64,000 bases of DNA from Spirochaetales bacterium (GTDB taxonomy: Bacteria > Spirochaetota > Spirochaetia > Treponematales > Treponemataceae): assembly GCA_003246765.1 (NCBI GenBank), contig QKDA01000265.1:1-64000 (forward strand), in the 5' to 3' direction. Positions within the stretch are counted from its first letter, which is position 1, and each line of letters opens with the position of its first letter. The position numbers and the translations under genes were made by a program. Below are positions 14,762 to 19,251 of the stretch, in pieces. The notes under the pieces are model-generated. The model saw only the letters and a list, made by a program, of their open reading frames with translations, searched no databases and was not told the DNA's origin.

Positions 14762-16189
14762 TCAGTCGGTAGCGAGTCCTGCCTCCTGGGGCAGGGCCTG
14801 TTCCGCGGCCAGGAGGTAGCGGACCAACTGTATCACGTAATTTACCCCGAGGATAACGCTCGCCGCGGAAGCCGCGTTTGAGGCAATTCCCCAGCGATTG
14901 ATGTCGTCGTAGGTAGTCTGTCTGTCGGGAAGCTTTCCCGCGTCATAGGCGCGAAGCTTGTCCTGAAGGGTTCCGTACGCCAGCATGGATACGGGAAGCG
15001 AGATATAGAGGGCGCCCAGGGACCAATAGAGGACAGACCTTTGCCCTTCTATGCGTTTCTCCGTTTTGATACGGTTCGACTTAACTTCGAAGGGGCCTGG
15101 ACCGCCCTGTACGTAGAACCAGGTGGTTACGCCGCCGTCGGTGACGCTTCCCAAGGAGGTTCCGAGGGGCAAGCTAAGGGTTACGGGGGATTCCCCCACG
15201 TAGAGGGAGTCGAGGTATACCAGGGAACCGGGAACGGAAGCCGAAAAACCCGCCGCCACGCGCGTTTCGGGTTCCAGGTTTATTGCGACGCGATAGGGGT
15301 GTCCTGCCTCGAAATTCGCTTCCATGAACGAGCTCACGTGTCCCGCCGCGTCCGCGTCGATACGGTGGGTTCCCGCAGGGACTACCCAGGTTCTGGTCCC
15401 GGAAGGAATAGTTTTGCCGTCGACGAAGACCTCCGCGCCTTCCGGGAAGATTTCGAGCTGGAGAGTAACGGCTTCCACGTGGGAAAGGGTGGTTTTTACT
15501 GCCGCCGTGAGGTTATCCACCAAACGGCCCAATTCCTCCCAAGGCGCCGCGGCGACATACTCAGAGGGGGCGATACCCTCTATGCCGGTTTCAATTTTCA
15601 TGGTGACCACGAGGTAACCCGAAGTATCCTCTATCGTACCCGTAATAAGGCCGGAAATTCCTGCCTGCCTGAGAGCCGAAAGGGGTTTCGCCCCCCCGTC
15701 GTAGAGCTTGCTCCCTCCCTCCCACAGGGCGACCCGTTGGGGGCTTCCCCCGGAGGCTACCGCCTTTTGCCTGATACCGGAGCTTTCCTGAAACGAACGA
15801 ATTTCTTTCTCTTTCTCCCGGATTTTCTTTTCCGCCGCCGCCCTTCGCCGAGACCTTGTAAGGGACGGAAGGGGATCGAAAAGGATCTTGTCCCTTTGGG
15901 ATATTAGGGAAGCGCGGTCCTTCACCAGGGAAAGGAGCTTGTCGTTTCTGGTTGCCCGTTCCCGGGCCAAGGTCTCCTCCTGCGCGGTAAAGCGCATGAA
16001 GCCCCCTTCAAGGGACTGGGAAACCATGAGGGGAAGCGATTCGGCGTATGATTCGTAGGCTGCAGGAAGGCCGTCGGAGGAAAAGCGTGATGCTGCGAGA
16101 ACCCAGTCATCGGCGCCCCACAGCTCAGGGGAGAGCAACGCGAGCGCGATGAGAAGGCTTCGCGTTCTACACCGCCAGGGAGAGGGCAT
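14762..16189 (-). CDS. Exported PEGA-domain protein
   Basis: 475 aa from ATG 16189, which has a textbook GGAGGT five bases upstream; the track start at 16441 adds 84 residues of shadow translation. A signal peptide (RTRSLLIALALLSPELWGA) is followed by a charged, coiled-coil-prone segment rich in Arg/Lys/Glu (about residues 70-135). A PEGA domain (LEIFPEGAEVFVDGKTIPSG ... VPAGTHRIDADAAGH) lies near residues 265-330. Two hydrophobic segments near the C-terminus (YWSLGALYISLPVSMLAYG and NAASAASVILGVNYVIQLV) could anchor it. PEGA proteins are common in spirochaete envelopes. The exact role is unknown. Confidence 0.82.
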   Translation of the reverse strand: MPSPWRCRTRSLLIALALLSPELWGADDWVLAASRFSSDGLPAAYESYAESLPLMVSQSLEGGFMRFTAQEETLARERATRNDKLLSLVKDRASLISQRDKILFDPLPSLTRSRRRAAAEKKIREKEKEIRSFQESSGIRQKAVASGGSPQRVALWEGGSKLYDGGAKPLSALRQAGISGLITGTIEDTSGYLVVTMKIETGIEGIAPSEYVAAAPWEELGRLVDNLTAAVKTTLSHVEAVTLQLEIFPEGAEVFVDGKTIPSGTRTWVVPAGTHRIDADAAGHVSSFMEANFEAGHPYRVAINLEPETRVAAGFSASVPGSLVYLDSLYVGESPVTLSLPLGTSLGSVTDGGVTTWFYVQGGPGPFEVKSNRIKTEKRIEGQRSVLYWSLGALYISLPVSMLAYGTLQDKLRAYDAGKLPDRQTTYDDINRWGIASNAASAASVILGVNYVIQLVRYLLAAEQALPQEAGLATD

Positions 16190-16499
16190 TGAGCACCTCC
16201 CTCGCGATGAGGGGCTTGTGAAGGACCGAAACCGCGCCGAGGGAGAGGGCTTCCTCCACCCGGTCCTCGTCGCCCGGCGATCCAACCACGATAAACCTGG
16301 TAGAAGGGGACCCGAGGCGGTAAGGCGCGGGATCAACGAAGAAAAAGGGCTCGTATACCACCGCGGCGGGACGGTCCGAGGCGATTCGTTCCTTAAGCGT
16401 TTCGTGAACCTCTCCCTCGAAACGTTCGAGCTCCATCCCATTCGCGAATTCCCTGAGCGCGCTGAAAAAACCCTCGGAACGGCACACCACCAGTATCAT
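16167..16499 (-). CDS. Small receiver-like protein lacking the phosphoacceptor Asp
   Basis: 110 aa from ATG 16499, in an ATGA overlap with the prfB stop. It has the alternating beta/alpha pattern of a response-regulator receiver domain: beta-1 MILVVCRSEGFF, beta-3 AAVVYEP, beta-4 FIVVGSPGDEDRVEEALSLGA and the conserved Lys strand VSVLHKP. The acidic pair after beta-1 is replaced by RSE, and the phosphorylated Asp position appears to hold Tyr/Glu, so it is probably a pseudo-receiver. No output domain is attached. Its last 23 bases overlap the PEGA gene start. Function unknown; the operon position suggests coupling with envelope or translation genes. Confidence 0.72.
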   Translation of the reverse strand: MILVVCRSEGFFSALREFANGMELERFEGEVHETLKERIASDRPAAVVYEPFFFVDPAPYRLGSPSTRFIVVGSPGDEDRVEEALSLGAVSVLHKPLIAREVLNALSLAV

Positions 16500-17627
16500 A
16501 GGTCCTCGTCGTCTCCTGCCAGGGGGAGCCCCTTCCATTTACTGTTGAGCCAGGATTCCATGAAGGGATCCAGGTCCCCGTCCATTACGGCTTGAATATT
16601 GCCCGTTTCGTGCTTGGTACGGTGGTCCTTCACCATGGTATAGGGCTGAAAGACGTAGGAGCGTATCTGGTTGCCCCAGGAAATTTCCTTTTTTTCGGCG
16701 GCGAACTTCTGGTTCTCCTGTTCCTTTTTTTCCTTGTAATACTCGTAAAGTCTTGCCCGGAGCATGTTCATCGCCAACTGCCGGTTCATGATCTGGCTTC
16801 GTTCGGTTTGGCAGGCTACCACGATACCCGTGGGAAGGTGGGTAAAACGCACCGCCGAATCGGTCTTGTTCACGTGCTGGCCCCCGGCTCCGCCGGCCCT
16901 ATAGGTGTCGACCCTGAGATCCTCGGGGCGAATGTCCACTTCGATGGTGTCGTCCAGGATGGGGAACGCGTGCACCGAGGTAAAGGAAGTATGCCTGCGC
17001 GCGTTAGCGTCGAAGGGACTGATTCTCACCAGCCGGTGCACCCCGGATTCACCCTTAAGGTACCCGAAGGCATAATCGCCGGTAATCTGGTACGTAACCG
17101 ATTTTATGCCGCCGTCGGCTTCCAGAATGTCGGCGGTCTCGACCTTGTAGCCTCTCCTCTCCGCCCAACGAACGTACATTCGGGCAAGCATTGAGGCCCA
17201 GTCACAGGCTTCTGTCCCGCCGGCGCCGGCGTGAATTTCGAGGAATGCCCCGTTACGGTCCACCTCGTCTGAAAGGAGATTGAGAATATTCAGCTTTTCA
17301 AAGCGCTCGGAAACGGCCTTGTAGTGCCTTTCGATCTCGACGGTCATGGAATCGTCCCCGGCCTCTTCGGCGAGTTCGTAAAGCGCTTCCAGGTCGCCGA
17401 TTTCGACCCTGAGCTCTTCCCAGGGATCGATGCGGCTTTTCAGGGCCCGCAGTTCGCTCATGGTCTTTTCGGCCTTCTTCGAGTCGTTCCAAAAACCCGG
17501 GGAAGCGGAAAATTCCTCTTTTTCCGCTATCTTAGCCTTTATCGCAACCGGGTCAAAGACGCCCCCAAATTTCCTCAACTTGGCTCTTCACCTCGTTGAT
17601 AGGGGTCTTGAATTCTTCTAGAATCAT
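16496..17627 (-). CDS. prfB: Peptide chain release factor 2, expressed by programmed +1 frameshift
   Basis: The track shows this as two pieces. The first 24 codons (MILEEFKTPINEVKSQ...WGRL) run from ATG 17627 to an in-frame TGA at 17553-17555; the remaining 352 residues are in the +1 frame (DPVAIKAKIAEKEEF...). Joined, they make a 376 aa RF2. The anticodon-like tripeptide SPF (SPFDANARRHTSF) and the catalytic GGQ (RAGGAGGQHVNKTDSAVR) are present. RF2 recognises UGA and UAA, and reading past its own UGA autoregulates it. The ATG is preceded by GAGGAG. It follows the Cas2-like gene by 13 bp. Confidence 0.95.
17552..17567 (-). promoter_or_regulatory. Programmed +1 frameshift site of prfB
   Basis: Reads TGG GGG CGT CTT TGA C. 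It has the conserved CTT TGA C slippery/stop core, with an internal Shine-Dalgarno-like GGGGG three bases before CTT, as in the classical RF2 site. Slippage over one T changes the frame from CTT TGA to CTT GAC. Confidence 0.93.
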
Positions 17628-17640
17628 GTCGTCGCTCCTC

Positions 17641-17952
17641 TTAGGATGTTCTTGATTTTGGTTTGCCCCCGTGCCCCGCGGGGGGGCGCACGAGAATGCG
17701 CTTCCAGCTCTTTTTAGACAGGACCGTAATGGCCAGTACGCCCTCAACCGGATACTGATACAGGCGAACGGTGTCGTAATAATCAGTAACCCGGTCGATT
17801 TCCTGCTTGATCTGTATCAGGGAACTTTCGGAAACCGTGGCGGATTCCCAGCACGCGCGCTGTACCTTGTCGAAACCCCAGGTGGCAAGCACGTCCGCGA
17901 GCAGCCTCGCGGATTCCTCCCCGCCTGGATCGAGCATAACGGAAACAAACAT
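17641..17952 (-). CDS. Orphan Cas2-fold protein
   Basis: 103 aa. The pattern matches a Cas2/VapD-type ferredoxin fold: beta-1 MFVSVMLDP with an Asp at position 8 (Cas2's YDI position), helix ARLLADVLATWGFDKVQ, then RACWESATVSESSLIQIKQEI and DTVRLYQYP (compare the VQ.SVFE and DSVRIYPL blocks of Cas2). A basic tail KSWKRILVRPP...KPKSRTS follows. No cas1, other cas gene or CRISPR array is in the window, so it is not an adaptation module here. It is the first gene of the prfB operon, with a -10 box 5 nt before its ATG (leaderless). The fold is inferred by eye; the function is unknown. Confidence 0.7.
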   Translation of the reverse strand: MFVSVMLDPGGEESARLLADVLATWGFDKVQRACWESATVSESSLIQIKQEIDRVTDYYDTVRLYQYPVEGVLAITVLSKKSWKRILVRPPAGHGGKPKSRTS

Positions 17953-18030: not shown

Positions 18031-19251
18031 ATGAAACCAGCATTACCGAGCGCTCTTCTGTGTGCGTGTCTTCTTTTATCTTCCGGCTTAACGGCCCAGG
18101 AAGGCGATTCCTTCTCCGGTCTCGGGGTTCCTCCCGCCCCGGTCGTTTCCGCGCTCTCGGCTTCCGTTTCCGGTACCGTCGTTACCCTGACATGGCAGCC
18201 CGCGCCCGGAATAACGGGTTCCAGCCTTATTCTCAGGGCCGAGTTTCCCATAACGGCGGCCAATGAATCTTCCGCCGAGCTTCGCGGCACCGTGGACCAT
18301 TCCGTGACAGCTTTCACGGACACCCTGGAGGGAAACGGCAAGTACTGGTACGCCGTGGTATCTTCGGACGATTCGGGCAGCCCTTATAACTTTTTCCTTC
18401 CCGCCAGCAATTCCCTCATACTTCCGGTTACCGCGGAGACTTCCGCGTACCGGGAGACGGTTCTATCCGGTTTTTCCGTGCGATCAAGAAACGACGCGGT
18501 TATAATAAGCTGGAACGCGGCCTTAGCGGGAAGCAATCTGGTCATCTACCGATCAACCTTGCCTTTCACGAGTTTTTCCAGCCTCGTGCCGGCGGTACTG
18601 GTTTCCGCCTTTACGGACACCGGCGGTACCTTTACGGATTACCCCGTTCCCGGCGTGCCGTACTACTACGCGGTACTGGACGAAAACTCCGTGCATTCAG
18701 GGAGCGTCACTTTCGTACCCGGGGGGAATACCAACGGAACTGCCGTGGAAATTCCCCAGGAGCTGGCGCTCATCCGCCGGTCCTCGACTCAGTCCCTGCG
18801 CCCTATGCCCCTGCCCTACCTGAATCCGACCCAAACCGCAAGGCCCGAGGGGGTCGTCTTTTCATCCGTCACGGAGGAGCGAATCTCCCAACTGGCCGTC
18901 AGCGCTTCGGGCGGCACCGAAGCACGCCGCCCCTACATATTCCGCTCAGACAGTGAAAGCACGTCCTCCGGGGGCGACGAATACGCCCTGCGGCTGATCG
19001 TCAACAGCTCCTTCCGGTCGGGAAACTATGAAGAAACCATCGAAAGGCTCAATGATTTCCTTTCCCTGCGCCGAAGCGTGCAAACCTCGTCCAGGGCCCA
19101 TTTTTACAAGGGCGAGTCGCTCTATTTCCTCGGGAAGGCGGAAGACGCGCTGTTGGAATTTCTGTTGGCCCGGGACAGCTACGAAAACCAGGCCGGAGAG
19201 TGGATTCAATATTCGCTTTCTTCCCTGGCTACCGCCCCCGTCCGTAACTAG
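18031..19251 (+). CDS. Exported protein with two FN3-like domains and a TPR-like C-terminus
   Basis: 406 aa from ATG 18031, behind GAGGAAGG; the longer track ORF begins inside the neighbouring Cas2-like gene. A signal peptide (ALLCACLLLSSGLTA, next QEGD) leads to two fibronectin-III-like units: PPAPVVSALSAS...VTLTWQPA...YWYAVVSSD and VLSGFSVRSRNDAVIISWNAA...YYYAVLDEN. After a Pro-rich linker, the last 90 residues look like paired TPR helices (RSGNYEETIERLNDFLSLRR, HFYKGESLYFLGKAEDALLEF). Likely periplasmic or surface-associated. It is a monocistron, divergent from the Cas2-like gene. Confidence 0.8.
   Translation: MKPALPSALLCACLLLSSGLTAQEGDSFSGLGVPPAPVVSALSASVSGTVVTLTWQPAPGITGSSLILRAEFPITAANESSAELRGTVDHSVTAFTDTLEGNGKYWYAVVSSDDSGSPYNFFLPASNSLILPVTAETSAYRETVLSGFSVRSRNDAVIISWNAALAGSNLVIYRSTLPFTSFSSLVPAVLVSAFTDTGGTFTDYPVPGVPYYYAVLDENSVHSGSVTFVPGGNTNGTAVEIPQELALIRRSSTQSLRPMPLPYLNPTQTARPEGVVFSSVTEERISQLAVSASGGTEARRPYIFRSDSESTSSGGDEYALRLIVNSSFRSGNYEETIERLNDFLSLRRSVQTSSRAHFYKGESLYFLGKAEDALLEFLLARDSYENQAGEWIQYSLSSLATAPVRN

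What the first reader, a model, noticed from the sequence alone, without database searches (positions are those of the whole stretch)
17641..17952. Orphan Cas2-fold gene at the head of the prfB operon
The 103 aa protein has the D8-containing beta-1, the VQ-x-W/F-E helix region and DTVRLY block of Cas2, plus a basic tail, but no cas genes or CRISPR array are present. Fixed association with release factor 2 and a pseudo-receiver suggests a housekeeping or regulatory nuclease/RNA-binding role rather than spacer acquisition.
Basis: partly seen in the sequence, partly recalled or inferred. Interest (0 to 1): 0.6.

Follow-up and report, generated by a model that had tools for sequence, protein, structure and literature searches.

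The report
CRISPR-free Cas2 relative before prfB
Many spirochaetes keep a small relative of the CRISPR protein Cas2 as the first gene of the operon for translation release factor 2, under strong selection and without any link to CRISPR, which suggests a standing cellular job for a protein fold known mainly from immunity and toxins.

Summary
Window 17641-17952 (-) encodes a real 103-aa protein under strong purifying selection (dN/dS about 0.03). It stands 13 nt upstream of prfB, which starts at 17627 and carries the usual +1 frameshift site. AlphaFold2 (pLDDT 92.7) gives a Cas2 fold; the leading PDB matches are Cas2. A profile comparison with spirochaete Cas2 gives 95.6%, E=1e-8. It is not a stray CRISPR gene: no array lies in any of 174 homologous loci, its presence is unrelated to Cas1 (p=0.83), and the same genome has a separate cas4-cas1-cas2-array locus. 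In a tree the family separates from canonical Cas2 with full support.

In Spirochaetia 104 of 106 loci have prfB next downstream. In older branches of the phylum the gene stands elsewhere, so the family predates the link. The pseudo-receiver association is local, not fixed. Position 8 is always acidic (D, or E in 10 of 81), but Tyr7 is gone and the Ser of the Cas2 site is mostly Ala.

Best reading: a domesticated, vertically inherited Cas2-fold homodimer that binds nucleic acid (RNA more likely) in a housekeeping role. Nuclease activity is uncertain. It is not needed for prfB frameshifting.

The parts
17641..17952 (-). Cas2-fold protein, 103 aa, first gene of the prfB operon
17929..17931 (-). 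codon of Asp8, equivalent of the Cas2 metal-binding Asp (D in 71, E in 10 of 81 representatives)
17698..17775 (-). family-specific conserved block, residues 60-85: D60, R63, Q66, P68, W83 invariant and a basic K/R-W-K/R-R strand
17628..17640 (-). 13-nt spacer with Shine-Dalgarno-like AGGAG between this gene and prfB
16496..17627 (-). prfB (RF2), start ATG 17627, +1 programmed frameshift; post-shift frame 16496-17578
   Evidence: TIGR00020 507 bits; sequence
17552..17566 (-). prfB frameshift site GGGGGCGTCTTTGAC
16167..16499 (-). receiver-like protein; phospho-acceptor region reads YEP (Glu for Asp); found only in the window's genus and a few others
   Evidence: Response_reg E=0.0088, below cut-off
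14762..16162 (-). PEGA-domain protein downstream (upstream end of the gene not fixed)
   Evidence: PF08308
13873..14751 (-). ftsY-like gene closing the conserved block (named from its sequence, no family search run)
18031..19251 (+). divergent gene upstream (fibronectin-III/TPR-like, named from its sequence); places the Cas2-like gene at the head of its operon

Best explanation
The gene encodes a member of a distinct, CRISPR-independent subfamily of the Cas2/VapD superfamily (shown by profiles, fold and tree). It was present early in Spirochaetota and became the first gene of the prfB operon in Spirochaetia (inferred from its distribution). The protein most likely works as a homodimer, as Cas2 does (inferred from the fold), that binds nucleic acid through its conserved basic residues, including the K/R-W-K/R-R strand (inferred). 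RNA or the ribosome is the likelier target, given co-transcription with RF2 (inferred, weak). Its nuclease activity is probably lost or altered (inferred). It therefore serves a standing cellular role, perhaps tuning translation termination or expression of its own operon, and not spacer acquisition or toxin function. I hold the identity and CRISPR-independence parts at about 0.93; the confidence given below is for the whole statement, mechanism included.
For: Fold: pLDDT 92.7, Cas2 structures lead the Foldseek list. Homology: hhalign 95.6%, E=1.3e-8; a PADLOC Cas2 model matches 55 of 55 members; one member reaches 41 bits for Pfam Cas2; three of four deep members tested pass the Pfam cut-off. 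Separate from canonical Cas2: tree split with SH-aLRT 100. CRISPR-independent: no array in 174 loci against 27 of 32 fetched cas1/cas2 loci, Cas1 association Fisher p=0.83, 11 of 11 other same-genus genomes lack Cas1. Housekeeping pattern: dN/dS about 0.03, distances correlate with prfB (rho 0.69, 0 of 200 permutations), prfB adjacency 104 of 106, no relative in viral contigs or plasmids. Active site: Tyr7 0 of 81; Cas2 Ser becomes Ala in 47 of 81; residue 8 is D or E. In Leptospira Cas2C, Tyr7, Asp8, Arg33 and Phe39 matter for DNase activity (PMC9510766). Binding: E36, K49, D60, R63, Q66, P68 and W83 invariant in 88 of 88; core pI median 9.0.
Against: An acidic residue 8 is universal, and basic and aromatic residues occupy two other Cas2 catalytic positions in most members (K/R at 29, W/F/Y at 35), so some nuclease activity may remain. 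BPSL1038 is a CRISPR-free Cas2-fold protein that is an active DNase (PMC10491678). The dimer was not modelled and no nucleic-acid binding was tested. The gene is dispensable: its presence changes at least 9 times on the prfB tree. Two genomes and the deep lineages keep it away from prfB, so the link to RF2 could be transcriptional convenience.
Confidence: 0.42

Rival explanations
1. It is an active Cas2/VapD-type nuclease (RNase or DNase) with a housekeeping role such as mRNA or stalled-ribosome turnover.
For: Residue 8 acidic in 88 of 88, D in most; basic and aromatic partners kept at 29 and 35; BPSL1038 and Leptospira Cas2C show nuclease activity in Cas2-fold proteins without CRISPR arrays (PMC10491678, PMC9510766).
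Against: Tyr7 absent in all 81 Spirochaetia representatives, Cas2 Ser mostly Ala, Asp8 changed to Glu about 5 times on the tree; the most conserved residues lie outside the classical site.
Confidence: 0.25
2. It is a protein-protein adaptor that contacts RF2 or another operon product through the conserved C-terminal strand.
For: Near-fixed adjacency to prfB; invariant W83 and P68.
Against: The same residues are invariant in deep lineages where the gene is not next to prfB, so they did not arise with the operon link.
Confidence: 0.17
3. It regulates prfB expression, for example its programmed frameshift.
For: First gene of the operon, short spacer to prfB.
Against: The frameshift site is present in 20 of 20 examined Spirochaetia prfB genes without the Cas2-like gene and has been lost about 4 times in lineages that keep it. 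Other kinds of autoregulation are not excluded.
Confidence: 0.1
4. It is an orphan or remnant of a CRISPR adaptation module, or works in trans with Cas1.
For: Cas2 models match it.
Against: Independent of Cas1 (p=0.83), 36 genomes have it without Cas1, the own genome has its own Cas2, tree separation, strong constraint.
Confidence: 0.03

Closest known systems
Canonical CRISPR Cas2 (PF09827/TIGR01573; e.g. Leptospira Cas2C 7F84, S. pyogenes Cas2 4QR0)
   Same: Fold, length, acidic residue at the end of strand 1, VQ...(aromatic)E motif, D-x-(V/L)-R-x-Y motif
   Different: No Cas1 or array; Tyr7 lost, Ser mostly Ala; three C-terminal strands with invariant P68 and W83; operon with prfB; separate branch in the tree
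BPSL1038 subfamily of Burkholderia (PMC10491678)
   Same: Cas2 fold, acidic strand-1 residue, no CRISPR system, conserved within its lineage
   Different: D-X20-SST active-site motif absent here (residues 29-33 read KVQRA in the window protein); other lineage and neighbours
VapD toxins (6ZI1; PMC11980593)
   Same: Cas2-like ferredoxin fold, Foldseek match at E=0.024
   Different: No small antitoxin gene next to it; the constant partner is prfB; not found on plasmids; strong purifying selection
PaaX central Cas2-like domain (PF20803)
   Same: Cas2-like domain in a regulator; 4 of 55 members match weakly
   Different: Stand-alone domain here, no partner domain

Membership tests
Cas2 (CRISPR adaptation protein) | Cas2-type ferredoxin-like fold | tested here: met
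Cas2 (CRISPR adaptation protein) | Sequence homology to Cas2 | tested here: met
   hhalign E=1.3e-8; PADLOC; the window protein itself is below the TIGR01573 cut-off and unmatched by Pfam Cas2
Cas2 (CRISPR adaptation protein) | Located with cas1 and a CRISPR array | tested here: not met
Cas2 (CRISPR adaptation protein) | Presence tied to Cas1 in the genome | tested here: not met
   Fisher p=0.83
Cas2 (CRISPR adaptation protein) | Active-site Tyr-Asp and Ser of canonical Cas2 | tested here: not met
   Asp or Glu kept, Tyr lost, Ser mostly Ala
Cas2 (CRISPR adaptation protein) | Homodimer through the C-terminal strand | not testable with these tools
   Monomer model only
VapD toxin-antitoxin | Cas2-like fold with strand-1 Asp | tested here: met
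VapD toxin-antitoxin | Adjacent antitoxin (VapX, VapW, VapY) or toxin-like mobility | tested here: not met
   Neighbours are prfB and a divergent long gene; no plasmid or viral relatives; no antitoxin profile was run
BPSL1038 subfamily | D-X20-SST motif | tested here: not met
   residues against the motif in PMC10491678
Cas2-fold nuclease (any) | Nuclease activity | not testable with these tools
   needs biochemistry

The most novel reading that the evidence does not exclude
A Cas2-fold protein has been built into bacterial translation: in Spirochaetia it binds the ribosome, RF2 or the operon mRNA and adjusts termination or RF2 supply, a cellular (non-immune, non-toxin) function for the Cas2 fold that may reflect a pre-CRISPR role of the fold.
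Probability: 0.2. Interest if true: 0.8.

Novelty: new variant of a known kind. Interest (0 to 1): 0.5.

Why it matters
The origin of Cas2 has been traced to toxins of the VapD type (PMC3150331). A constrained, vertically inherited Cas2-fold family outside CRISPR and outside toxin-antitoxin pairs offers a testable third role and a comparison for Cas2 evolution. It also warns that Cas2 models call these genes orphan cas2: PADLOC Cas2_IIIa matches all 55 members.

Tried and rejected
Link to prfB frameshifting: rejected by phyletic pattern. An apparent overlap between D8E and frameshift loss: mostly one clade, only 3 independent pairs, no test possible. Co-occurrence with RF3: Fisher p=0.018 over all genomes, 0.077 in the near-complete ones, and confounded because the window's genus nearly all has both; not used. 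RNA element near the operon: no Rfam match at E<=0.1. Mobile origin: no relatives in viral contigs or plasmids. Direct sequence search of the PDB: nothing relevant with the single protein, Cas2 only at E about 0.01 with the profile. Literature: no paper found on this family. Dimer modelling was not possible. Distribution outside Spirochaetota could not be searched with a profile: the one genome-collection scan used peptide patterns from the single protein and returned only spirochaetes.

Full report
What is there. The ORF at 17641-17952 (-) encodes 103 aa. Its stop is followed by a 13-nt spacer with AGGAG and then prfB at ATG 17627. prfB carries the classical frameshift site GGGGGCGTCTTTGAC at 17552-17566, so the mechanical prfB ORF from 17578 misses the true start, which lies in the other frame 24 codons before the site. 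The upstream gene is divergent, so the Cas2-like gene is first in the operon. Comparison with the two nearest relatives gives dN 0.04-0.05 and dS 1.2-1.7: the frame is coding and strongly constrained.

Is it Cas2-like? The single protein scores below the cut-off of TIGR01573 (E=0.0016) and has no Pfam Cas2 match. As a family the relationship is firm: 49 of 55 members match TIGR01573, 24 match PF09827, all 55 match PADLOC Cas2_IIIa, one member reaches 41 bits on PF09827, and a profile comparison with 26 canonical Cas2 proteins of related spirochaetes gives 95.6% and E=1.3e-8 over residues 1-66. The AlphaFold2 model has mean pLDDT 92.7 with strands 2-8, 28-31, 34-37, 61-69, 72-79, 82-88 and helices 12-24, 42-55. 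The leading Foldseek matches are Cas2 (TM by query length 0.5-0.6, best E 1e-3, probability 1.00), with VapD further down. The C-terminal third differs from canonical Cas2 and is not covered by the profile alignment.

Is it CRISPR? No. The genome has one Cas1 and one Pfam-Cas2 hit, side by side with a Cas4-like ORF and a repeat array on contig C25. No CRISPR-like array occurs in the window or in any of 174 Cas2-like loci, while 27 of 32 fetched cas1/cas2 loci have one (loci vary from about 2 to 10 kb). Over 99 relatives, the gene and Cas1 occur independently (30 both, 36 gene only, 14 Cas1 only, 19 neither; p=0.83). None of the 11 other same-genus genomes has Cas1, yet 10 have this gene. In a tree of 124 rows the Cas2-like proteins and the 36 canonical Cas2 fall on two sides of a branch with full SH-aLRT support (only 92 columns, so many inner forks are unresolved).

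Distribution and synteny. 92 of 393 sampled genomes of the phylum have it. In Spirochaetia 104 of 106 loci with at least 1 kb downstream have prfB next, same strand, mostly followed by a PEGA-domain gene and ftsY. Exceptions: L010 and L048 keep an intact gene away from prfB. Seven members from deeper families (L146-L152) form a related group and are not near prfB or recognisable cas genes. Their profile finds the window gene as the only match in this genome at E=2.4e-16. The prfB tree needs at least nine changes of presence; in several genomes without the gene the divergent neighbour and prfB remain, so it was cleanly lost. A 1.1-Mb genome of the same family lacks it. Pairwise distances follow prfB (rho 0.69). 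No relatives were found in viral contigs or plasmids.

Residues. Among 81 representatives below 80% identity plus 7 deep members, E36, K49, D60, R63, Q66, P68 and W83 are invariant. Residue 8 is D (71+7) or E (10). Canonical Tyr7 is replaced by L, C, I or V in nearly all, and the canonical Ser (S37 of Cas2, residue 33 here) is A in 47 and S in 17 of the 81. Leptospira Cas2C needs Tyr7, Asp8, Arg33 and Phe39 for DNase activity, and Sulfolobus Cas2 needs Tyr9, Asp10, Arg17, Arg19, Arg31 and Phe37 for RNase activity (PMC9510766). Here the acidic, basic (K/R29) and aromatic (W/F/Y35) positions are mostly kept and Tyr is lost. This leaves nuclease activity open, with loss or change more likely in my judgement. 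The core is basic (median pI 9.0) and strand 82-88 carries K/R-W-K/R-R, which suggests nucleic-acid binding.

Mechanism. Shown: fold (predicted), family, CRISPR independence, constraint, synteny. Inferred: dimer, nucleic-acid binding, cellular role. The link to RF2 rests on synteny alone. Frameshift control is contradicted: the site is present in all 20 examined Spirochaetia prfB genes without the gene and lost about four times in genomes that have it. RF3 co-occurrence is confounded.

Known or new. Cas2-fold proteins outside CRISPR are known: VapD and BPSL1038 (PMC11980593, PMC10491678). This family meets the fold and homology criteria of Cas2 but fails the CRISPR-context and active-site criteria, and lacks the BPSL1038 motif and a VapD-type antitoxin neighbour. 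I found no paper on it in the library searched, which lacks most subscription journals. I file it as a new variant of a known kind.

Noticed in passing
window 16167-16499 (-): Receiver-like protein after prfB with a conserved YEP in place of the phospho-acceptor Asp; detected only in the window's genus and a few other genomes of the family.
   Followed up: partly
L022, L044, L050, L056, L058, L059, L066, L111 (prfB starts): prfB has lost its programmed frameshift and reads straight through, about four independent losses on the prfB tree.
   Followed up: partly
G000 contig C25 (L001): Canonical cas4-like, cas1, cas2 and a short repeat array in the same genome; looks like type I-C by gene order, not typed.
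   Followed up: partly
99 related genomes: Release factor 3 (prfC) is present in only 27 of 99 relatives, including nearly all of the window's genus.
   Followed up: partly
L148 176-2605 and L151 2435-4933 (in the orientation with the Cas2-like gene on +): Large uncharacterised proteins of similar start sequence lie upstream of the Cas2-like gene in two deep-branching genomes.
   Followed up: no
window 14762-16162 (-): PEGA-domain protein kept between prfB and ftsY across much of Spirochaetia.
   Followed up: no
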